Positions 7,966-18,482 of a stretch of 45,504 bases of DNA are shown here, piece after piece. A program made the translations under genes and the position numbers. Numbering within the stretch: position 1 is the first letter of the stretch; the number at the start of each line of letters is the position of its first letter. The stretch comes from Flavobacteriia bacterium (GTDB lineage Bacteria; Bacteroidota; Bacteroidia; Flavobacteriales_D; Crocinitomicaceae). The DNA is taken from positions 1 through 45,504 of the forward strand of contig JAPLEV010000011.1 in NCBI GenBank assembly GCA_026391005.1, in the 5' to 3' direction. The notes below the pieces were generated by a model, which was given only the letters and a program-made list of their open reading frames with translations, did not search any database and was not told where the DNA came from.

Positions 7966-10518
7966 ATGAAAATATTAATTACTCTACTTCTAATTACCTC
8001 ATCCATTTATGTGACAGGGCAAGCTTATTTAGGAGTGCATAATAGCAATTATATTGGCGTTATGGGCACCCAAATTCAACCTGCGAGTTTTGTCGATGGA
8101 CGCTTTGCTTTTGACATGAACATTGCGAGTATGAATGTCAACACGTATCAGAACTTTGGTTATTTTGATGCTGACGCCATGCGTGATGCGCAAGGAAATG
8201 GTGGATTCTGGTGGGCGAAATCTTTTGATAGTGTGCAAAGTAATATTTGGCCAAATCCCGACTCTACTTTTATGGATCGATTTATAGGTCGCCGGTTTGA
8301 TGAAAACTCAAAAAAAACGCTTGGTTTTTATAATAATGTTCAAGTTGATCTGCTAAATTTTGCTTTTCATATATCTCCCAAAATAGCACTTGGTTTTTTT
8401 GTGCGGGGCAGAACTGTAACAAACATTGATAACATGGATCCAAAGCTTGCCGTATTAGCAGAGAATGGACTCGATTATCAACCACTGTGGAATCAAAAAT
8501 TAAATGAGTCATTATTAAATATAAGCCATTTGGCATGGTCTGAATATGGCTTCAACTACAGCCAAGTTGCTCTTGACAAAGGTGAACATTTCCTCAAAGT
8601 TGGTGGAAGTATTAAATATTTAGCGGGACTTACCGCAGCTTATTTCTACACTAGTAATTTTAATTACAATATAAAAAATACAGACACCTCTTATGTTTTG
8701 CAAGGTGATTTTAATTATGGTTACTCAAATAACTTAGATGAAATTACAGACCCAAATACTCAGATTGATGGTACAAACTGGCAGGAGTTTCTTAAAAAAT
8801 CTTCTTCTTTTGGTATGGGACTAGATTTAGGAGCAGTATACGAATGGAGAGAGAATTATAAAGATTATAAATACGATATGGATGGTGAAACTGATCTTTG
8901 GATGCGTAACAAAAATAAATATAAACTCCGCGTTGGCGCCTCTATTATTGATCTCGGTGGAATGAAATTCCAAAAAGGTGGTTTGAGTAGAAATTTTACA
9001 GTTAACTCAACCAATGAATTTGATTTAACAACTTTTGAATCCGCATCAAGTTTATTGGGATTTGACCAAGTTATCGATAGTTTAATTCAACAGCCAAACG
9101 ATGATAGCTGGACCGCAGCGCAGGATACCTCAAGTACTTTTTGGATGAAAACACCTGCCGCCTTGAGTTTTCAAGTAGATTACCATATTTGGAAAGGATT
9201 TTACGTGAACGCAAGTAGCATGATAAACTTAAGAGCCAATAGGAAAGATACGAAAATTAGAATTCCAAATCAATTTTCCATAACGCCGAGCTTCGATGTC
9301 GCAGGATTTGGTTTGTATTTACCCATCTCTATTAATACTTACAGCGGATTTAAAGCTGGAATTGCCACTAGACTTGGCCCCCTAACCCTAGGTATTACTG
9401 ACTTTAGAGTATTACTTGCAAAAGGAAAGGTAAGTGGAGCAGAATTTTATGCGGGTTTACGTCTACCTATTCTGTATGCAAAAGTGAAAGATGACGATTT
9501 AGATAAAGTCTCTAACAAAAAAGATGAGTGTCGCGATGCGCCGGGGGTTTGGGCATTTATGGGCTGCCCAGATACTGATGGTGATGGAATTCAAGACAGC
9601 AAAGATGATTGTCCAACGGTTGCCGGAATTGTAGAATTTAACGGTTGTCCTGATACTGACGGTGATAAAATCATGGATAAAAAAGATTCTTGTCCAGATG
9701 TTGCAGGACCTATTGAATATAATGGGTGCCCTGATACTGACGGTGACAAAATCATTGACAAGAAGGATAGCTGCCCTACTATTGCTGGGGTTCAATATTT
9801 ACAAGGATGTCCAGATCGTGACAAAGACAGCATCACTGATGCGGATGATTTATGTCCTGATAACTTTGGTCCACGTGAAAACAACGGCTGCCCTGACACT
9901 GACAAGGATGGTATTTTTGACTATTTAGACGACTGCCCATTAATTTTCGGCCCTAAGGAAAATAATGGTTGTCCATGGCCAGATACGGATGCGGATGGCT
10001 TACTTGATAAAGATGATGATTGTCCTCTTTTAGCTGGTCCAAAAGAAAACAAAGGTTGTCCATTTAAAGATACAGATGGAGATGGTTTGTTGGATAAAGA
10101 CGATGATTGTCCGAATACACCTGGACCTAAGTCTAACAAAGGCTGTCCAGTAATAGAAGTTGAGGTGGAAGAAATTTTAAAAACAGCCTTTGATGCCTTA
10201 GAATTTGAATTTGGAAAAGGAATTATTTTAGATATATCCAAACCATCTTTGATAGAATTAGCAGGAGTTCTAACCAAAAAACCTACTTGGAAACTTGAAA
10301 TAACAGGGCATACAGATAATGTGGGAGATGAACAAGCTAATTTAATCTTGTCAAAGAAACGGGCAGAAGCAATTCGTGAATTCCTAGTAGGACAAGGAAT
10401 AGATTTTACAAGACTAAACGTACTATATTTTGGAGAAACGAAGCCGATAGGAGACAATAATACATCGGAAGGTCGTCAAAAAAACAGACGAGTTGAAATG
10501 AAAATTATGTTTGATTAA
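7966..10518 (+). CDS. DUF5723-type outer-membrane protein with TSP3 repeats and OmpA domain
   Basis: An 850-residue outer-membrane protein. Signal peptide 1-18. Residues about 20-505 form a beta-barrel-like domain (repeated aromatic strands; I associate it with DUF5723). About 506-729 hold eight thrombospondin type 3-like repeats of the DTDGDGIxDxxDxCP type, which bind calcium through the Asp ladder. About 735-850 is an OmpA C-terminal domain: ITGHTDNVGDEQAN, LSKKRAEAIREFL and GRQKNRRVEMKI supply the peptidoglycan-binding site. It should tether the outer membrane to the cell wall through a rigid calcium-stiffened linker. It follows the propeller-like membrane protein after two bases. A structural or gliding/T9SS-accessory role is possible but unproven. 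Confidence 0.88.
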   Translation: MKILITLLLITSSIYVTGQAYLGVHNSNYIGVMGTQIQPASFVDGRFAFDMNIASMNVNTYQNFGYFDADAMRDAQGNGGFWWAKSFDSVQSNIWPNPDSTFMDRFIGRRFDENSKKTLGFYNNVQVDLLNFAFHISPKIALGFFVRGRTVTNIDNMDPKLAVLAENGLDYQPLWNQKLNESLLNISHLAWSEYGFNYSQVALDKGEHFLKVGGSIKYLAGLTAAYFYTSNFNYNIKNTDTSYVLQGDFNYGYSNNLDEITDPNTQIDGTNWQEFLKKSSSFGMGLDLGAVYEWRENYKDYKYDMDGETDLWMRNKNKYKLRVGASIIDLGGMKFQKGGLSRNFTVNSTNEFDLTTFESASSLLGFDQVIDSLIQQPNDDSWTAAQDTSSTFWMKTPAALSFQVDYHIWKGFYVNASSMINLRANRKDTKIRIPNQFSITPSFDVAGFGLYLPISINTYSGFKAGIATRLGPLTLGITDFRVLLAKGKVSGAEFYAGLRLPILYAKVKDDDLDKVSNKKDECRDAPGVWAFMGCPDTDGDGIQDSKDDCPTVAGIVEFNGCPDTDGDKIMDKKDSCPDVAGPIEYNGCPDTDGDKIIDKKDSCPTIAGVQYLQGCPDRDKDSITDADDLCPDNFGPRENNGCPDTDKDGIFDYLDDCPLIFGPKENNGCPWPDTDADGLLDKDDDCPLLAGPKENKGCPFKDTDGDGLLDKDDDCPNTPGPKSNKGCPVIEVEVEEILKTAFDALEFEFGKGIILDISKPSLIELAGVLTKKPTWKLEITGHTDNVGDEQANLILSKKRAEAIREFLVGQGIDFTRLNVLYFGETKPIGDNNTSEGRQKNRRVEMKIMFD
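9484..10152 (+). repeat. Eight tandem thrombospondin type 3 repeats (coding)
   Basis: Inside the OmpA-type gene there are eight units of about 75-90 bases. Each encodes an Asp-rich loop followed by a Cys-Pro and a Gly-Cys-Pro boundary. The neighbouring units near 9650 and 9740 are almost identical at protein level (DTDGDKIMDKKDSCP and DTDGDKIIDKKDSCP), which indicates fairly recent unit duplication. Confidence 0.85.
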
Positions 10519-10547: not shown

Positions 10548-10616
10548 TTGTCACGCTTAATTAACATTAAATTAACATTTTATTAATTCTTAAATTAAGC
10601 GCTTAAACTTACTTTG
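10548..10616 (+). promoter_or_regulatory. Putative Pho-box array and promoter of the TonB receptor
   Basis: TTAACA occurs at 10561 and 10572 and TTAATT at 10583, exactly 11 bases apart, with a preceding TGTCAC at 10549 in register (one unit earlier). Direct repeats of this hexamer on one DNA face are the layout bound by PhoB/PhoP-type OmpR-family regulators. A -7-like TTACTTTG at 10609-10616 follows, so the array would lie at the -35 region, as expected for an activator site. A PhoB-like regulator is encoded 6 kb downstream. The assignment is inference from pattern and context. Confidence 0.55.
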
Positions 10617-10633
10617 TTGACGAATTTAAAACT

Positions 10634-13522
10634 TTGTCTGTGAGAGTAATTCTACTTGTTTTTTTTAGTGTTTTTTTTATTAAAAATATTCATTCCCAAT
10701 CAGCTATCGAACAAGCATCGATTAATGGGAAAGTAACCGATGCCATAACAAATGAGGCGCTGTTTGGCACCAAAGTAATTGTTCAAGGCATAAGCAAAGG
10801 TGCTGTAGTAGACGCTGATGGTAAATACACTATCGAGGGATTAGCTGCCGGTAGATATACCTTAGAAATCAGAAGTCAAGGATATAACAATTTGTTACTC
10901 ACGGATGTCATTGTTAAGGCCACTGAAAAAAGAATCCTTGATATTAAGATGGAAAAAATAGTGACGGAATATGGTCCAGTAACTGTAGTTGCCAAAGTAA
11001 ACAGAGAATCTACAACAGAACTACTTCGAATGCAAAAAAATTCTGCCTCAGTTGTGGATGGTATTAATGCCGAAACTTTCAAAAAAACACCAGATTCGAA
11101 AGCAGCAGATATTTTAAAACGTATTACTGGTGCAAGTATTCAAGACAACAAGTTTTTAGTAATCCGAGGGCTTAGCGATCGTTATAATTTTGCCTTGCTA
11201 AATGGAGCTCCACTTCCAAGTACCGAAAGTGACAAGAAGGCTTTTTCATTTGACATTTTCCCATCAAATATGTTGGATAATTTGTTAATTATGAAAACTG
11301 CTACTCCCGACCTTCCTGGAGAATTCGCAGGCGGAGTTCTTGATATTAATACCGTAGAACCTAAAGAAACAAATTATCAATCTATACAATTAAGCTTGGG
11401 ATACAATACGCTTTCTACTTTTCAAAAGTTTATGGTTTCTAAGGATTCTAAAATTGATTTTCTTGGCCTTGGGGCAGCAGACAGAAGCCTCCCAGACAGA
11501 TTGCCATCGACACAAGAGTTTGCATCCCTTAGCATTGCAGATAAAGGAAGATTAGCGCAAAATATGGAGTGGAGTTGGACACCCACTTCGATGTTAGCAT
11601 TGCCAAATACATCCATTCAATACGCCCTTGGAAGAAATTATAAATTAAAAGATAGTGTAAGGTCAGTTGGGTTTTCTTTTGCTTATTCCTACTCAAATAC
11701 TTCCTCCTACAGTACCAATATTCGCCGTGAATTTGAGGGCGATACCGATCCTTCAGGTAACAATGCTGTAATTAACCCAGCGAACATAATTCAACGGATG
11801 GAATTAGTCGATTCAGTGTTTGCAAGATCCGTATTAAACTCTGCGATGTTTAATGTTAAATTTGTACTTGGTTCAAAAAGTAATATTCAATTTAAAAATA
11901 TATATTCTGTAAACTCCGAAGACAAAATTAGCATCAGAAATGGCATACGTGAAATGGATAATGACCCTCATCAATATGAGAAATCAACTAATTTTTTATA
12001 CAATCAAAACAATTTATACACTAGCCAACTCATTGGGAAGCACTCATTTGATAAATTTAAGGTGAATTGGAACGGTGGTTACAGCAAAGTTGCTCGAGAA
12101 ATCCCTTGTCAAAGAAGAATTGTCTACCGTAAAAATGCAATGGATGTTAATGATACTACGGAGCAATTTATTGCACTCATACAAAATGATGGAACGCTTC
12201 CAAGTGCAGCAGGAAACATGTTTTGGTCGAGCTCGGATGAAAGTGTTTACAGTTTAAAATATGACATCGCACTACCTTTTGAAGTTTCTATACTTAAAAA
12301 TGAATTAAAAGTAGGTGGTTTTCATCAATATAGATCACGCGAATTTACCGCTCGCAATTTGGGCTTTTCTAAATACTCACCATCTGGTAGTAGTTTCGAT
12401 GGCCAATTGCTTCTCGCTCCATCTGACGAACTATTTTCTGCTGAGCACCTTGGATTAATGTCTAATGGTTTAGGAGGGTTTAAGTTAGATGAGGCAACGA
12501 ATGTTGATGATAGTTACCAGGCATCAGCTTTTTTGAATGCTGGTTTCGTGAGCTTAGATTCCAAAATAGGTGAAAAAATTCGCCTAGTTGGTGGAGTAAG
12601 GCTAGAGTCCTATAATCAAGTTTTTAATTACATCGAGTTTGGATCTAATGCGGCTAAAAAAATTGATTCAACTGTTATTGATTTATTGCCATCAGTTAAC
12701 TTCATCTATTCTATTAACAAAAAGATGAATATACGAGCAAGTATCTATAAAACAGTATCAAGACCTGAGTTTAGAGAACTTGCACCATTTAGTTTTTATA
12801 ATTTCATGTTGGACAATATTATTTCCGGAAGTCCAAAATTAAAACGAGCCGTTATTACAAATTTAGATTTGCGTTATGAGTATTTTCCTGGTGAAGGTCA
12901 AATAATAAGTGTTTCAGGGTTTTATAAAGATTTTACAGATCCAATCGAGTTAATAAATAGAACCGGTACTTCAGGTGCCCCTGAATTATATTATACTAAT
13001 ATTCCTAAAGTAACTAACTATGGCGTTGAAGCTGAATGGCGAATGAAGCTTGGATTTTTATCTAAACAAGAAAACCATCCATTATGGAGCAATGTAACAC
13101 TTTACGCAAACGCTTCCATTATTCGTTCAAAGGTAGATCTTAGTAATACAATTGGATCGGGAATCGCAAGACCTTTACAAGGGCAATCACCTTATATTGC
13201 AAATGCTGGTTTATACTACGCTAAAAATGATTTTTCAATTAGTTGCTCTTATAACATTGTTGGTCAGAGAATATATATTGTAGGAAATATTCAAGAACCT
13301 AATGTTTGGGAAAACGGACGACATATAATTGACATTCAAGTAGCAAAAACATTTAACGAGAAGTTCGAACTGAAATTAAATGTTAAAGATTTACTAGCAC
13401 AGAAACTAATTTATTTCCAAGATCTGAACAACGACCGTAAATATACGGCGGAAGCTGATAATACTTGGCAAGAAAGTTCTTTTGGCCAGACAGTATCATT
13501 GTCCTTAAAATACAACTTTTAA
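10634..13522 (+). CDS. TonB-dependent outer-membrane receptor
   Basis: A 962-residue TonB-dependent transporter, importing a bulky or scarce nutrient across the outer membrane with TonB/ExbBD energy. Signal peptide to about residue 22. A carboxypeptidase-regulatory-like domain (about 29-110: INGKVTDAITNEALFGTKV) precedes the plug (about 140-240: DILKRITGASIQDNKFLVIRG, then PDLPGEFAGGVLDINT), and the rest is the 22-strand barrel ending in LSLKYNF with a terminal aromatic. No ATG is available: the frame is closed by TAA at 10604, so the start is TTG at 10634 or GTG at 10640 (the latter gives a clean MRVILLVFF signal). It is preceded by Pho-box-like repeats and followed by a T9SS surface protein and PhoB/PhoR-like genes, so phosphate or an organophosphate is a plausible substrate; this is inference. 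Confidence 0.92.
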   Translation: MSVRVILLVFFSVFFIKNIHSQSAIEQASINGKVTDAITNEALFGTKVIVQGISKGAVVDADGKYTIEGLAAGRYTLEIRSQGYNNLLLTDVIVKATEKRILDIKMEKIVTEYGPVTVVAKVNRESTTELLRMQKNSASVVDGINAETFKKTPDSKAADILKRITGASIQDNKFLVIRGLSDRYNFALLNGAPLPSTESDKKAFSFDIFPSNMLDNLLIMKTATPDLPGEFAGGVLDINTVEPKETNYQSIQLSLGYNTLSTFQKFMVSKDSKIDFLGLGAADRSLPDRLPSTQEFASLSIADKGRLAQNMEWSWTPTSMLALPNTSIQYALGRNYKLKDSVRSVGFSFAYSYSNTSSYSTNIRREFEGDTDPSGNNAVINPANIIQRMELVDSVFARSVLNSAMFNVKFVLGSKSNIQFKNIYSVNSEDKISIRNGIREMDNDPHQYEKSTNFLYNQNNLYTSQLIGKHSFDKFKVNWNGGYSKVAREIPCQRRIVYRKNAMDVNDTTEQFIALIQNDGTLPSAAGNMFWSSSDESVYSLKYDIALPFEVSILKNELKVGGFHQYRSREFTARNLGFSKYSPSGSSFDGQLLLAPSDELFSAEHLGLMSNGLGGFKLDEATNVDDSYQASAFLNAGFVSLDSKIGEKIRLVGGVRLESYNQVFNYIEFGSNAAKKIDSTVIDLLPSVNFIYSINKKMNIRASIYKTVSRPEFRELAPFSFYNFMLDNIISGSPKLKRAVITNLDLRYEYFPGEGQIISVSGFYKDFTDPIELINRTGTSGAPELYYTNIPKVTNYGVEAEWRMKLGFLSKQENHPLWSNVTLYANASIIRSKVDLSNTIGSGIARPLQGQSPYIANAGLYYAKNDFSISCSYNIVGQRIYIVGNIQEPNVWENGRHIIDIQVAKTFNEKFELKLNVKDLLAQKLIYFQDLNNDRKYTAEADNTWQESSFGQTVSLSLKYNF

Positions 13523-13562
13523 AAAGTCGCAATCACTCTCCTTTTAAGAAGATCTCCGTTTT

Positions 13563-13651
13563 GTTAAGCCGGGGTTACCAATCCTTAACAAATCCTTAAA
13601 GAAAACATAAGGCAACTTTAACATGACGATAGGATTATCACATGACCTTTG
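13563..13651 (+). promoter_or_regulatory. Putative Pho-box array and promoter of the surface protein
   Basis: TTAAGC (13564), TTACCA (13575), TTAACA (13585), TTAAAG (13596), ATAAGG (13607) and TTAACA (13618) recur every 10-11 bases. The three central units share the linker AATC(C). A -7-like GACCTTTG lies at 13644-13651. This is the same architecture as upstream of the TonB receptor, which makes a common regulator likely. The two copies of ACATGAC at 13622 and 13640 may be a second site. Confidence 0.5.
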
Positions 13652-13678
13652 TATCGTATAAATTTTAAAAAAGAAAAC

Positions 13679-16658
13679 ATGAAGAAAATCTATTTAAGCT
13701 TATTAGCTATTGCTATCGTAACTTCTTTCAATGCACAAGATGCATTTTGGAACGTTACTAATTACAGGGGAGCATTTCCCATAACGGATAATACGCCAGC
13801 AACAGATTGGACAGCTGGATGGTCTAACTTTGACCCACAAACTACCGTTTATCCTGCTATCGTAACGACAGTATCGACAGATGTATTAACCAACACGACA
13901 TGGAGTGGAGTTGTTAAATTACAGAACAAAATTTATGTAAAAAACAATGCAACACTTACCATCTTACCAGGCACTATCATTCGAGGTGATAAGTTAACTC
14001 AAGCGACATTAATTGTCACAAGAGGAGCTAAAATTTATGCCAATGGAACAGCCGCTAATCCGGTTATATTTACTTCTAATGAAGCTCCGGGCACAAGACT
14101 ACCAGGAGATTGGGGAGGACTTGTTCTTTTAGGACTTGCCAAAAACAACCAGCCAGGTGGTGTAGCAAATATAGAGGGTATTGTACCAACAACCGACACA
14201 CAATTCGGTGGAAATTTTGATAACGATAATTCTGGCTCGCTTACCTATGTTAGAATAGAATATGGAGGAATTGCTCTTGAACCAAATAAATGGTTTATCA
14301 ATACGTGACAAAGATTTATCAGATGCAATTGGTGATTCAAATTCCTTTGAATCAGATAACGACGCAGCAGGATCAACAGCTCAACCTAAAACAAGACCAA
14401 TTTTTTCTAACATGACTATCGTAGGACCAAAAGGAAACGGTACAATTGTATTGCCTGTTGGAGAGAAGTTTGAAAAAGCATTTAGATTAAGAAGAAACAC
14501 TTCTACTTCATGTTTAAATTCACTTGTAGTTGGTTGGGAAAAAGGATTGTCAATCGAAAGTGCAACCACCGCTGCTAACGCTACAGGTGATAGTTTAATG
14601 TTTGCTTCCAATACAATGACCAACTTTACTAATGGAACGAATGTAATTACATCTTCGGGAGTTTCTGGCGCATTTTACGCTAGTTTCTTTGGTGTAGATG
14701 GTAATGATTCTACAGTTACTCTACCTCTAGTAAATTGGGTGAATATTTTCACTGCTTTAGGTACTACACCTGATGCTCGTTTAAATGCTGGATCTACGGT
14801 TTCTACGACAGCAAACTTTACTAATCCTAAATTCTTTAGTGTACTTGCTCCAGTTGTAACAAACTCTGCTACTTACTGTCAAAACACGCTTGCAGCAGCA
14901 ATAAATGGAACTCCACTAGTTGGAAATACACTTTATTACTATACAACTGCAGTTGGTGGAACAGGAAGCATTACGCCTATCGTACCAAGTACTACAACCC
15001 CGGGTATTTACACTTATTATGTAAGTCAAAAAAATGCAGCTGGTGACGAAAGCCCACGCTCTATGATTACGGTAACCATTAATCCGGCACCAACAGTAAG
15101 CGGAGGAACTAATCAGTCAATATGTGCTGGAACCTCTGTTACATTAACAGGTTCAGGAGCTGTTTCATACACTTGGGACAACGGCGTAAACAACGGCGTA
15201 AGTTTTATACCTACGGCAACAACTACTTATTCAGTAATCGGAACAGCTGCAAACGGATGTACCAATAATAACCAAGTAACTGTTACAGTAAATTCATTGC
15301 CAACAATTAATGCAGGTATTAACCAAACAGTATGTGCAGGAACATCAGTAACACTGAATGCTTCTGGAGCATCTACTTATGCATGGAACAACGCTGTAAG
15401 CAATGGAGTAAGCTTTATTCCTGCAGCAACAACTACTTATACAGTAACTGGAACGGCAGTAAACGGATGTACTAATACCGCCTTAGTAACTGTAACGGTG
15501 AATGCCTTACCAGCAACTCCAGTTATTACTGCAAGTGGATCTACTTCTTTTTGTACAGGTAGTTCTATTAATTTAACATCCTCATACAACAATAATAATG
15601 TATGGTCTACAGGAGCTATCAGCCCAATTATTAATGTAGCTAATTCAGGCGTTATTACTGTCACCTATACGAATGCAAACGGCTGTAGTGCTACATCAGC
15701 TCCAACTAGCATAAATGTAAGTGCTGCTCCTCAACCTACTGTTCAAGTAAGTTCAAATCAAGTATGTACAGGTGATACAGTTGTTTTAACAGCATCTACC
15801 TCTGATAGCTATCTTTGGTCGACTGGTCAAACCACTCAATCCATTTTAATTACTGCTACTACGCCATCAATAACAGTAACAGTAACTAACGCTATCGCAT
15901 GTAATGGAACAGGAACATCACAACCCGTTACTGTTACCATTGTTACTACACTTCCTACTGTGTCTGCTAGTTCTTTAACAGCTTGTTCAGGTGATACAGT
16001 TACTTTAACCTCTTCGCCAGCCGATACTTATACTTGGTCTACAGGACAAACTACACAGTCAATTTCAATTTCAGCTACGACTACAGCTAGCGTAACGACG
16101 ACAAATTCTAATGCATGTAATGGTTATGGAATGTCTCAAGCAACTACGGTGACCTTTACTTCTACACCAACAGCTGCAGGAGCATTTACAACAAATGGTA
16201 ATGTTGTATCCTTTACTAATACATCAACAGGAGCAGCTTCATACTCTTGGGATTTTGGAGATCAATCTAACTCATCAGCAATTGCTCCTTCACATGCTTA
16301 TATTGGCAATGGAGTATATGTTGTAACATTAACCGCTATCAATGGGGCGTGTACAGATGTAATCACTTTTGATGTAATAATGTCGGTAGGTTTAGATGAG
16401 TTAACAGGTCTTTCAAATGTTACTATCTACCCTAATCCAGCGAATGATCTACTAAACATCGATTACAATAAAAATGGAGACGATGTAGTTGAAATTTCAA
16501 TTATTGATCAATTCGGAAGAGTTGTTACATCAATAAATGGCTTGTCTAACGGCTTTAACCATAACACTATTGACGTTAGCAACTTACAAAGTGCCGTTTA
16601 TTTTGTACGATTTACAACGAACGGATTTAGTAAATCTGAACGATTAGTAATACGTTAA
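13679..16658 (+). pseudogene. Broken T9SS surface protein: beta-helix, Ig-like repeats, PKD, sorting domain
   Basis: Read as one gene with a lesion near 14285-14305. The first frame (13679-14308) starts MKKIYLSL with a signal peptide and encodes the start of a right-handed beta-helix domain (WSGVVKLQNKIYVKNNATL, then IEYGGIALEPN). It then shifts. The other frame resumes with NQINGLS, the expected continuation of EPN-N(E/Q)INGL in this family, so about eight bases seem lost (CAAATAAA at 14283 looks like the remnant of a tandem repeat). Directly after GLS the text jumps to IRDKDLSD, skipping roughly 60 residues present in relatives. Downstream are five Ig-like repeats (about 15090-16165), a PKD domain (about 16170-16385) and a T9SS type A domain. 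The start was set at ATG 13679; an in-frame TTG at 13649 lies in the promoter. An ATG at 14262 could restart translation but would lack a signal. Confidence 0.75.
15090..15509 (+). repeat. Two near-identical 210-bp Ig-like coding repeats
   Basis: Units 15090-15299 and 15300-15509 are each 70 codons and share phrases such as CAGTSVTL, NGVSFIP, ATTTY, NGCTN and VTVTVN. Three more diverged copies follow to about 16165. The array forms the stalk of the surface protein and is a place where recombination could change length. Confidence 0.75.
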
Positions 16659-16678
16659 ATACTAATTAAGATAACCAT

Positions 16679-16713
16679 AAACGGGGAGTAATATTCTATT
16701 ATTCCCCGTTTTT
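16679..16713 (+). terminator. Rho-independent terminator after the surface-protein gene
   Basis: AAACGGGGA (16679-16687) pairs with TTCCCCGTTT (16702-16711) around an AT-rich loop and is followed by a T run. It ends transcription 21 bases after the T9SS gene stop and separates that gene from the response regulator, so the regulator pair needs its own promoter or read-through. Confidence 0.85.
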
Positions 16714-16728
16714 AATAATTAAAGTAAA

Positions 16729-17412
16729 ATGGACAACGCTAAAGGTTATACGATATTACTAGTTGATGATGAACCGGATATTTTAGATTTTCTTTCTTAT
16801 AACATAAGGAAAGAAGGGTATAAAGTATTTACGGCATCTAATGGTGAAGAAGGTGTAAAACTAACCCAACAAGTAAGTCCAGCACTTATATTAATGGATG
16901 TTATGATGCCTAGGATGGACGGGATAGAGGCTTGCCAAGTCATACGGAAAGATTTGAACATTACCCAGCCAATAATAGCATTTTTAACCTCTCGGGCTGA
17001 AGATTATGCTCAAATTGCAGGTTTTGAAGCTGGGGCAGATGATTATATTTCAAAGCCCATAAGGCCAAGATTATTAATTGCGAAAATAGAATCGCTATTA
17101 AAAAGATTAAATAATAAAATCGTACATGATACTAAGGTATCAAGCATAGAAATCGATCGAGAGAGATACCTAGTAACTACCGAAGGGAAAGAATTAATCC
17201 TGCCAAAAAAAGAATTCGAACTTCTAGAATTATTAGCAAGTCGTCCGGGAAAGGTGTACAATCGGGAACAAATATTAGCAATCGTTTGGGGGAATGAAAC
17301 CATCGTTGGAGAACGAACAATTGATGTTCACATAAGAAAACTTCGTGAAAAGCTTGGAGATGATTATATTCGTACCGTAAAAGGAATCGGATATACCTTC
17401 AATCAAAAGTGA
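16729..17412 (+). CDS. OmpR/PhoB-family response regulator
   Basis: A 227-residue DNA-binding response regulator. The receiver domain (about 6-122) has acidic pocket Asp13/Asp14, phosphoacceptor Asp57 (LILMDVMMP), Thr87 and Lys109 (DDYISKPI). The C-terminal winged helix (about 130-225) ends ERTIDVHIRKLREKL and RTVKGIGYTF, typical of the OmpR/PhoB group, which binds tandem direct repeats. Its stop overlaps the kinase start by four bases, so the two form a cognate pair. The kinase resembles PhoR in its short, loop-less membrane part, and 11-bp repeats precede the two genes upstream, so PhoB is a good candidate identity, though sequence alone cannot separate it from other OmpR members. Confidence 0.93.
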   Translation: MDNAKGYTILLVDDEPDILDFLSYNIRKEGYKVFTASNGEEGVKLTQQVSPALILMDVMMPRMDGIEACQVIRKDLNITQPIIAFLTSRAEDYAQIAGFEAGADDYISKPIRPRLLIAKIESLLKRLNNKIVHDTKVSSIEIDRERYLVTTEGKELILPKKEFELLELLASRPGKVYNREQILAIVWGNETIVGERTIDVHIRKLREKLGDDYIRTVKGIGYTFNQK

Positions 17413-18482
17413 AAAATTTAAGGCCTAGCATTTTAATCTTATTGGGAAGCATTCTATTTCTAATGCTTAGCGTTACTACCGCTATATTATTCCATCTATT
17501 TGTATTTGAACTTTCACTATGGGTTATTATCTTAATACCCTTTATCGCAGCACTTGTTGTGTTTGCATTGTTCTATGCTTTATTAAAGAAATTTATTCAA
17601 AACAGACTGCATTTAATTTATAAATCAATTCAAACTAATCAACAAATTGCACCATTTAAAGGCAGTGCAATAGACAAGTTAATAAGCACAGTAGAAATAG
17701 ACGTGCGTAACTGGAAGGAAAATAAAAATAAAGAAATAACAAAACTTAAAGATCAGGAACAATTCAGAAGGGAATTTTTAGGGAATTTAGCCCATGAACT
17801 TAAAACGCCAGTGTTTGCTGTTCAAGGTTATATTTTAACCCTTATTGAAGGAGGCATCGATGATAAGCAAGTTAACGTGCAGTTTCTAGAACGCGCCTCA
17901 CGTGCTACTGAAAGAATAGTAACTATTTTAGAAGATTTAGACCAAATTGCAAAATTGGAAGTTGATACCCTAAAAATCGAACTTCGTTCTTTCGAAATTA
18001 TAAATCTAATCAAAGAAATCATTGAAACTTTAGAATTAAAAGCAAAAGAAAAAAAGGTTTCTCTCAAATTTCATAATGAACTTTCATCCATTTATGTGAC
18101 CGCAGACCGAAATAAAATAGGCCAGGTATTAACCAACCTAATTAATAATGCAATCAGTTATGGAAAAATTGATGGAGAAGTAGTTATTTCAGCAGTGCCT
18201 GTTGATGACTTAGTAACAATTGAGGTAAAAGACAACGGTATTGGAATTGATGCAGTACATCTTCCACGTCTTTTTGAACGCTTTTACCGCGTAGAAAAAA
18301 GCAGAAATAGAAACGAAGGTGGTTCTGGTCTAGGTTTGGCGATTGTTAAACATATTGTTGAATCACACAAACAAAGCATAAATGTGCGAAGTTCCATTGG
18401 TATCGGAAGTACTTTCAGCTTTTGCCTCAAGAAAAGTGTCATCTCTGGCCCAGTAAGTTCAAGAGGAATACCATTAAAATAG
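17409..18482 (+). CDS. PhoR-like sensor histidine kinase
   Basis: A 357-residue membrane kinase starting at GTG 17409 inside the regulator's stop (GTGA). Two transmembrane helices (about 7-30 and 36-59) are separated by only a few residues, so there is no periplasmic sensor domain; input must come through the membrane or from a partner protein, as for PhoR with the Pst transporter and PhoU. The HisKA box is FLGNLAHELKTP with His129. The ATPase has the N box (QVLTNLINNAISYG), G1 (DNGIGID), F box (LFERFYRV) and G2 (GGSGLGLAIVKHI). It should autophosphorylate and pass phosphate to Asp57 of the adjacent regulator. No PAS or full HAMP domain is evident in the linker. Confidence 0.93.
   Translation: MKNLRPSILILLGSILFLMLSVTTAILFHLFVFELSLWVIILIPFIAALVVFALFYALLKKFIQNRLHLIYKSIQTNQQIAPFKGSAIDKLISTVEIDVRNWKENKNKEITKLKDQEQFRREFLGNLAHELKTPVFAVQGYILTLIEGGIDDKQVNVQFLERASRATERIVTILEDLDQIAKLEVDTLKIELRSFEIINLIKEIIETLELKAKEKKVSLKFHNELSSIYVTADRNKIGQVLTNLINNAISYGKIDGEVVISAVPVDDLVTIEVKDNGIGIDAVHLPRLFERFYRVEKSRNRNEGGSGLGLAIVKHIVESHKQSINVRSSIGIGSTFSFCLKKSVISGPVSSRGIPLK

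What the first reader, a model, noticed from the sequence alone, without database searches (positions are those of the whole stretch)
10548..18482. Candidate phosphate-scavenging surface locus: TonB receptor, T9SS protein and PhoBR with Pho-box-like repeats
Seen: tandem 11-bp repeats (TTAACA type) lie before both the TonB receptor (10561, 10572, 10583) and the beta-helix/Ig/PKD surface protein (13564, 13575, 13585, 13596, 13607, 13618), each followed by a Bacteroidota-style -7-like element. A PhoB-like regulator and a short PhoR-like kinase with no periplasmic sensor follow. Known: OmpR/PhoB regulators bind 11-bp direct repeats. Inference: the pair controls the receptor and surface protein, giving a dedicated outer-membrane phosphate or organophosphate uptake system.
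Basis: partly seen in the sequence, partly recalled or inferred. Interest (0 to 1): 0.78.

Follow-up and report, generated by a model that had tools for sequence, protein, structure and literature searches.

The report
Precisely spaced phosphate-starvation promoter repeats
Two neighbouring cell-surface genes in this bacterium carry DNA repeats at a fixed distance from a predicted transcription start signal, the same layout that stands before phosphate genes in its relatives, so the PhoB-like regulator encoded beside them likely switches them on when phosphate is scarce.

Summary
The repeats are real, oriented and conserved in register. A strict rule read from 19 receptor promoters (three TTAAY units 11 bp apart, the last starting 30 bp before TTTG) gives 61 hits in 86 genomes of the genus, 3 for the reversed pattern; 52 precede the TonB receptor (17 of them training sequences) and 6 precede phoB. 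A four-unit form gives 40 hits against 0; 35 of 36 distinct sites precede the surface-protein gene. In 138 other genomes of the family the rule gives 30 hits against 3: receptor 19, phoB 2, pstS 1, related lipoprotein 1, other 7. A matrix from receptor repeats also marks the porin/pit intergenic region in 18 of 33 genomes. The array is very probably a Bacteroidota Pho box. Corrections: the surface-protein gene is frame-broken here; loose TTAACA scans show no enrichment; this genome has no further strict site. The gene layout is known from Flavobacterium (PUSIV). Not seen in the papers searched: the fixed promoter geometry, and a genus without detected PstB whose PhoU-type domains go with Pit or NptA. 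Phosphate response and substrate are untested.

The parts
7966..10518 (+). DUF5723/OmpA-family gene, conserved upstream neighbour of the cassette
   Evidence: Pfam; found before the receptor in 14 of 20 fetched regions
10561..10593 (+). Receptor-type Pho array: three 11-bp TTAAY units (10561, 10572, 10583)
   Evidence: 30-bp register to TTTG conserved
10609..10616 (+). -7-like element TTACTTTG, TTTG at 10613, 30 bp after the start of the last repeat
10634..13522 (+). TonB-dependent receptor, 962 aa (TTG start as listed)
   Evidence: PF00593, PF07715, PF13715, PF13620; TIGR01782 below cut-off
13564..13584 (+). Two upstream, weaker repeats (TTAAG 13564, TTACC 13575), one base out of register with the next four
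13585..13628 (+). Surface-protein-type Pho array: four units TTAAC, TTAAA, ATAAG, TTAAC
13644..13651 (+). -7-like element GACCTTTG, TTTG at 13648, 30 bp after the start of the last repeat
13679..14308 (+). First reading frame of the broken T9SS surface-protein gene
   Evidence: intact relative P0002
14262..16658 (+). Second reading frame: end of the N-terminal domain, Ig_7, PKD_4 and T9SS sorting tail
   Evidence: deletion junction 14290/14291
16679..16711 (+). Terminator-like hairpin between surface gene and phoB; predicted to make phoBR depend partly on read-through
   Evidence: -19.4 kcal/mol, z -4.9, 0 of 200 shuffles as good
16729..17412 (+). PhoB-like response regulator
   Evidence: PF00072 + PF00486; best NCBIfam hits are PhoB models, below cut-off
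17409..18482 (+). PhoR-like histidine kinase, N-terminal hydrophobic stretch, no PAS, HAMP or periplasmic domain matched
   Evidence: HisKA + HATPase_c; hydropathy

Best explanation
The locus holds a receptor and a surface-protein gene, each preceded by tandem 11-bp TTAA repeats that end 30 bp before the TTTG of a predicted -7 element, a layout that in relatives also stands before phoB and, in one genome, before pstS, and the adjacent PhoB-like regulator likely binds these repeats and switches both genes on when phosphate is scarce. Shown: the arrays, their fixed register, their conservation and the genes that follow them. Inferred: the kinase phosphorylates the regulator in low phosphate; regulator dimers stack on the 11-bp repeats and take the place of a -33 element, recruiting RNA polymerase to a weak -7; read-through of the terminator at 16679-16711 then raises phoBR. 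The receptor is predicted to import phosphate or an organophosphate together with a surface-exposed partner of the ElpS/FII kind, which here carries a type IX sorting tail instead of a lipid anchor and is broken in this assembly. [quoted passage not shown]
For: Register: last repeat 30 bp before TTTG; 53 of 76 receptor promoters score at least 11/12 at that register (72 score at least 10), against 2 of 76 for the best of 16 other registers. Four-unit form: 49 of 70 at least 14/16, the best of 14 other registers 0 of 70. Genome-wide: 61 hits against 3 control in 86 genomes, 58 of 61 before receptor or phoB; 40 against 0, 35 of 36 distinct sites before the surface gene, 1 not placed. Outside the genus: 30 hits in 138 genomes against 3 control, 23 of 30 at receptor, phoB, pstS or the lipoprotein; with TAnnTTTG demanded, 10 against 1 in 299 genomes: 5 before phoB, 1 before the receptor, 1 before pstS (PstS over cut-off). 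Trans placement. Porin/pit region: array in 18 of 33; 17 of those 18 genomes have a PF07396 match beside pit (one below cut-off), 0 of the 15 others has one. Literature, passages only: F. johnsoniae phoBR-operon receptor and lipoprotein induced by phosphate depletion (PMC8115612); R. anatipestifer PhoP motif TTTAACA (PMC9603813); ElpS and the neighbouring receptor in Caulobacter (PMC2996285); PitR and NptA control PhoPR in S. aureus (PMC13170248).
Against: No binding or expression data for this organism. The strict rules were read from promoters of this same locus, so hits at the receptor and surface gene inside the genus are partly circular (17 of the 52 receptor hits are training sequences); the phoB, pstS, porin and out-of-genus hits are the independent part. 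Looser scans are not enriched. In the window's own genome the only strict sites are these two, and its pit operon has no array. The regulator and kinase fall below the cut-off of every PhoB and PhoR model shown. Two of 61 and 7 of 30 strict hits precede genes with no recognised phosphate link (two of the 7 carry a choice-of-anchor-I domain). The pit operon carries TTAA-type units in another register. Relatives are not independent samples. The broken surface gene means the pair may not work in this strain.
Confidence: 0.8

Rival explanations
1. The arrays are sites of this OmpR/PhoB-family pair, but the pair answers to another signal (metal, envelope stress, carbon source) and the receptor imports something else.
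For: The regulator misses the PhoB equivalog cut-offs and the best kinase models include PnpS, PhoR and WalK alike; no Pst or PhoU partner in this genome; in R. anatipestifer many PhoP candidate targets are membrane or aerotolerance genes (PMC9603813 passages).
Against: The same register stands before pstS in one family member and an array of the same unit lies in the porin/pit region of 18 of 33 genomes; the F. johnsoniae receptors of this kind are reported as induced by phosphate depletion only (PMC8115612 passages).
Confidence: 0.15
2. The repeats are AT-rich promoter DNA with chance or structural periodicity (DNA bending) and no dedicated regulator.
For: TTAA is frequent in AT-rich DNA; one-mismatch scans are hardly richer than the reversed pattern (235 against 214).
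Against: Fixed 30-bp register, C or T at the fifth base in all 57 receptor repeats, 61 against 3 and 40 against 0 genome-wide hits at the same genes.
Confidence: 0.03
3. The arrays are real PhoB sites but repress rather than activate.
For: In the porin/pit region the array runs antiparallel to the porin and lies close to its start signal, which would suit repression there.
Against: At the receptor and surface-gene promoters the array lies upstream of a poor -7 with a constant gap, the layout of an activator; the F. johnsoniae counterparts are strongly induced (PMC8115612 passages).
Confidence: 0.07

Closest known systems
PUSIV / phoBR operon of Flavobacterium johnsoniae (Fjoh_0541-0549; PMC8115612, passages read)
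   Same: TonB receptor, FII-type hypothetical lipoprotein, PhoB and PhoR in one cluster; receptor and lipoprotein strongly induced by phosphate depletion
   Different: Here the partner carries Ig/PKD repeats and a T9SS tail and is broken; no Porin_O_P in this genome; 'Pho box' and 'binding site' do not occur in that paper; sequence homology of the individual proteins was not tested
ElpS (cc0170) and TonB receptor cc0171 of Caulobacter crescentus (PMC2996285, passages read)
   Same: Phosphate-starvation surface protein next to a TonB receptor
   Different: Lipoprotein released with the help of a T2SS, in an alphaproteobacterium with Pst; homology to the window protein not tested here
Bacillus PhoP / E. 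coli PhoB boxes (recalled, no call)
   Same: 11-bp direct repeats, TTAACA-like unit in Bacillus, activator in place of the upstream promoter element
   Different: Bacteroidota-type -7 with a constant 30-bp spacing; a four-unit form with TTAAY outer and (A/T)TAA(A/G) inner units
Riemerella anatipestifer PhoP motif TTTAACA (PMC9603813, passages read)
   Same: Same core in a Flavobacteriia regulator, with its own operon and a TonB receptor promoter among the tested sites
   Different: No repeat register or spacing in the passages read; the term 'direct repeat' does not occur in that paper
PitR/NptA accessory regulators of Staphylococcus aureus (PMC13170248, passages read)
   Same: PhoU-like partners of Pit and NptA control the phosphate two-component system
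   Different: S. aureus also has Pst-PhoU; in this genus no PstB was detected

Membership tests
PhoBR phosphate regulon | Receiver plus winged-helix regulator beside a HisKA/HATPase kinase | tested here: met
PhoBR phosphate regulon | Over the curated cut-off of a PhoB or PhoR equivalog model | tested here: not met
   PhoB 201 of 270 and 199.9 of 296.2 bits; PhoR 229.1 of 334.2 and 161.5 of 500 (best 25 models shown per protein); hence PhoBR-like, not filed as the named equivalog
PhoBR phosphate regulon | Shared operator at phoB and classic phosphate genes | tested here: met
   In relatives: phoB in several, pstS in one; not at pit of this genome
PhoBR phosphate regulon | PstSCAB-PhoU signalling partners | tested here: not met
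   PstB over cut-off in 0 of 61 genus genomes, 13 of 14 controls positive; PhoU in 9 of 61, not in this genome; the one checked is Na_Pi_cotrans + PhoU
PhoBR phosphate regulon | Induction by phosphate limitation | not testable with these tools
   no expression data for this organism
Receptor + ElpS/FII-type surface partner (PUSIV-like) | TonB receptor followed by the surface protein and phoBR | tested here: met
   this window; whole order in 12 of 20 fetched regions, most others cut by contig ends; intact relative of the surface protein matches a lipoprotein-like protein of the genus at 41% over 219 aa, E 1e-37
Receptor + ElpS/FII-type surface partner (PUSIV-like) | Sequence homology to ElpS or Fjoh_0546 themselves | not tested
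   those sequences were not fetched
Receptor + ElpS/FII-type surface partner (PUSIV-like) | Lipid anchor | tested here: not met
   T9SS sorting tail; no cysteine in the N-terminal signal stretch, by eye
SusCD/PusCD pair | SusD-like lipoprotein beside the receptor | tested here: not met
   no SusD family in the ten proteins scanned

The most novel reading that the evidence does not exclude
One PhoB array code, read in two directions, swaps the outer-membrane phosphate gate: placed 30 bp before the -7 it turns on a TonB-driven receptor and its surface partner, and laid antiparallel across the porin promoter it turns off the diffusive porin paired with Pit, all in a lineage that has discarded Pst and senses phosphate only through the PhoU-like partner of Pit or NptA.
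Probability: 0.3. Interest if true: 0.75.

Novelty: new variant of a known kind. Interest (0 to 1): 0.57.

Why it matters
It gives a predictive, directional rule for likely PhoB-controlled promoters in Bacteroidota (unit, spacing, distance to the -7), so phosphate regulons of uncultured members could be read from sequence. It also offers a natural case, a genus in which no PstB was detected, to test how PhoR senses phosphate when only Pit/PitR or NptA-PhoU is present.

Tried and rejected
Loose motifs: TTAACA N5 TTAACA with up to one mismatch (39 hits in this genome, reversed control 68; the exact hits outside the window include sites near a DegP-like and a DUF1573-like gene, names recalled from the translations) and the array with one mismatch in 61 genomes (235 against 214) do not separate signal from background; dropped for the strict oriented form.

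A conserved site before a T9SS surface protein (L111-L113) was first taken for a nuclease target; the translations, read by eye without a family search, did not support it and the idea was dropped.

The array near pit was first assigned to the DUF47-pit operon; in the genomes where it occurs a divergent porin starts beside it. The pit operon has its own two-unit element in another register, so it is not counted.

In one search I demanded TAnnTTTG, which excludes the genus sites themselves (their -7 is poorer); it was kept as a test outside the genus, and the family was searched without that demand.

Structure of the lipoprotein-like relative: mean pLDDT 49.5, not used, no fold search made.

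Rows dropped before counts: one search tests 76 of 80 loci (4 lack the start of the receptor); one search tests 70 of 80; one search tests 33 of 43 regions (no DUF47 start found in 10); L152 exceeds its shuffles too, but with a score of 4.1 on only 146 bp, and is not counted as an array; in L140 the reverse strand scored slightly higher; classifies 36 distinct strings of the 40 hits (4 are identical copies). Relatives are not phylogenetically independent, so counts are not probabilities.

Full report
OBSERVATION. The window is contig C35 of a 2.64-Mb, 95% complete genome. The claimed genes and repeats are at the stated places. TTAA in 11-bp register at the observed number is rare in shuffles of either region (3 and 0 of 500). 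One thing was missed: the surface-protein gene is in two overlapping frames. A relative that matches the second frame at 98%, P0002, is a single 1055-aa frame, and DNA comparison shows that the window lacks about 190 bp at 14290/14291 and leaves the frame there. Whether this is a real lesion or an assembly fault cannot be told here.

CONSERVATION OF THE LOCUS. A search of 60 related genomes found a receptor match in 59, paralogues included; 24 of 37 genus genomes have one of at least 41% identity. Of 20 fetched regions, 12 show the whole order receptor, surface protein, PhoB, PhoR; most others are cut by contig ends, and in one of another family PhoBR lies upstream and divergent. The DUF5723/OmpA gene precedes the receptor in 14 of 20.

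THE PROMOTER RULE. In 19 genus promoters of the receptor (the window included), TTAA pairs lie 11 bp apart 41 times and 9, 10, 12 or 13 bp apart 1-4 times each. The last unit starts 30 bp before TTTG in the receptor promoters, also in two genomes of another family of the order; in L066 the automatic pick was an upstream array, and the 30-bp one scored 12/12. In 14 of 16 genus surface-gene promoters the third unit is 41 bp from TTTG and a fourth unit occupies the 30-bp place (not in L077 and L078). The receptor unit is TTAAYNTW, with C or T at the fifth base in all 57 units. In the larger, partly overlapping set, 53 of 76 receptor promoters reach 11/12 at register 30 and 72 reach 10, against 2 of 76 for the best of 16 other registers. 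The four-unit form reaches 14/16 in 49 of 70, the best of 14 other registers in none.

GENOME-WIDE TESTS. The strict receptor form gives 61 hits in 59 of 86 genus genomes, reversed control 3. Of the 61, 52 precede the receptor, 6 precede phoB, 1 is cut by a contig end and 2 precede neither. Because the rule was read from 19 of these promoters, 17 of the 52 receptor hits are training sequences; the other 35, the phoB hits and the near-absence of other hits are not. The strict four-unit form gives 40 hits in 39 of 86 genomes, control 0, with the same caveat; of 36 distinct strings, 35 precede the surface-protein gene and 1 could not be placed. In 138 non-genus genomes of the family there are 30 hits, control 3: receptor 19 (three of them weak, 30-34% identity), phoB 2, pstS 1, related lipoprotein 1, other 7. 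With TAnnTTTG demanded, 299 order genomes give 10 hits, control 1: phoB 5, receptor 1, pstS 1, two choice-of-anchor-I proteins and one other; six of these ten are also in the family list. The PstS protein is over its curated cut-off (263.2 against 206.6 bits). In the window's own genome only the two sites of this locus satisfy the strict forms. Looser scans are not informative (39 against 68; 235 against 214).

TRANS CONTROL. In four genus genomes (G013, G024, G035, G083) the array stands directly before phoB, and a one-mismatch array stands before a lipoprotein-receptor operon elsewhere. In G034 and G101 the receptor (with its array) lies on one contig, with no surface gene in the 3.6 and 5.5 kb after it, and surface gene, phoB and phoR (with the four-unit array) lie on another contig. 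The lipoprotein-like protein and the surface protein share a domain (41% over 219 aa).

PHOSPHATE TRANSPORT SETTING. PstB over cut-off was found in 0 of 61 genus genomes, although 13 of 14 control genomes were positive. PitA was found in 47 of 61, including this genome. PhoU domains were found in 9 of 61, none of which has PitA (Fisher p 1.2e-7 on counts of related genomes); the one checked is a Na/Pi cotransporter with a PhoU domain, and the protein encoded before pit, checked in one genome, is PhoU_div/DUF47. Five genomes showed neither, some of them incomplete. In S. aureus PitR, encoded with pitA, and the NptA PhoU domain control PhoPR (PMC13170248, passages; that PitR is the DUF47 family is my reading). 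Hence the inference that PhoR here is read out through Pit or NptA.

PORIN/PIT REGION. A matrix trained only on receptor repeats marks an array in 18 of 33 regions upstream of DUF47-pit, each with 0 of 100 shuffles as good. Seventeen of the 18 genomes have a Porin_O_P match beside pit (one below the cut-off), none of the other 15 has one; in the 18th the divergent gene was not recognised. In 17 of the 18 the stronger strand reads towards pit, hence antiparallel to the porin (L140 is the exception). In five porin promoters the units picked lie 24 or 35 bp before TTTG, in three others 12, 25 or 36, in the rest elsewhere or with no TTTG; this nearness to the start would fit repression, but it is less regular than at the receptor. 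In F. johnsoniae the porin of the phoBR operon is not induced by phosphate depletion while receptor and lipoprotein are (PMC8115612, table passage). This genome has no such porin.

SENSOR AND AUTOREGULATION. The kinase has an N-terminal hydrophobic stretch and only HisKA and HATPase domains. A strong terminator-like hairpin separates the surface gene from phoB; read-through from the array promoter is the predicted source of autoregulation.

WHAT IS KNOWN. The gene layout and its phosphate response are known from F. johnsoniae (PMC8115612), the receptor/surface-protein pairing from Caulobacter (PMC2996285), and the TTTAACA core from R. anatipestifer (PMC9603813); all were read as passages only. 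A full-text search for Pho box, Bacteroidota, PhoB, phosphate and promoter together found no paper, and by title and abstract start searches listed none on a Bacteroidota Pho-box geometry; these searches cover open-licence papers only.

VERDICT.

Noticed in passing
window 14290/14291: Frame-breaking loss of about 190 bp in the surface-protein gene; intact copies exist in relatives. The part after it (14301-15076) is 91% identical to L213 while the part before is 80%, which suggests mosaic recombination in this gene.
   Followed up: partly
genus-wide, 61 genomes: PitA and PhoU-domain (NptA-type) proteins are mutually exclusive: 47 and 9 of 61 genomes, none with both, 5 with neither; no PstB over cut-off.
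   Followed up: partly
L167 and other DUF47-pit promoters: A conserved two-unit element like TTATGTTTACG|TTAACAAA precedes the pit operon, with TTTG 56-57 bp after the first unit in 24 of 33 regions; a different register from the Pho array, regulator unknown.
   Followed up: partly
L111-L113: A conserved one-mismatch array before T9SS-type surface-protein genes with unknown phosphate role in three genus genomes.
   Followed up: partly
L313, L315: The strict array precedes secreted proteins with a choice-of-anchor-I domain in two family members; possible further phosphate-scavenging proteins.
   Followed up: partly
L125: One genus member (G018) has the array before phoB with no phoR directly downstream.
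   Followed up: no
G000:C7:31357 (L001): An exact TTAACA N5 TTAACA pair precedes a DegP/HtrA-like protease gene, named by eye.
   Followed up: no
window 9565-9768: 81-bp tandem repeat (2.5 copies) inside the OmpA-family gene, which carries thrombospondin type 3 repeats.
   Followed up: no
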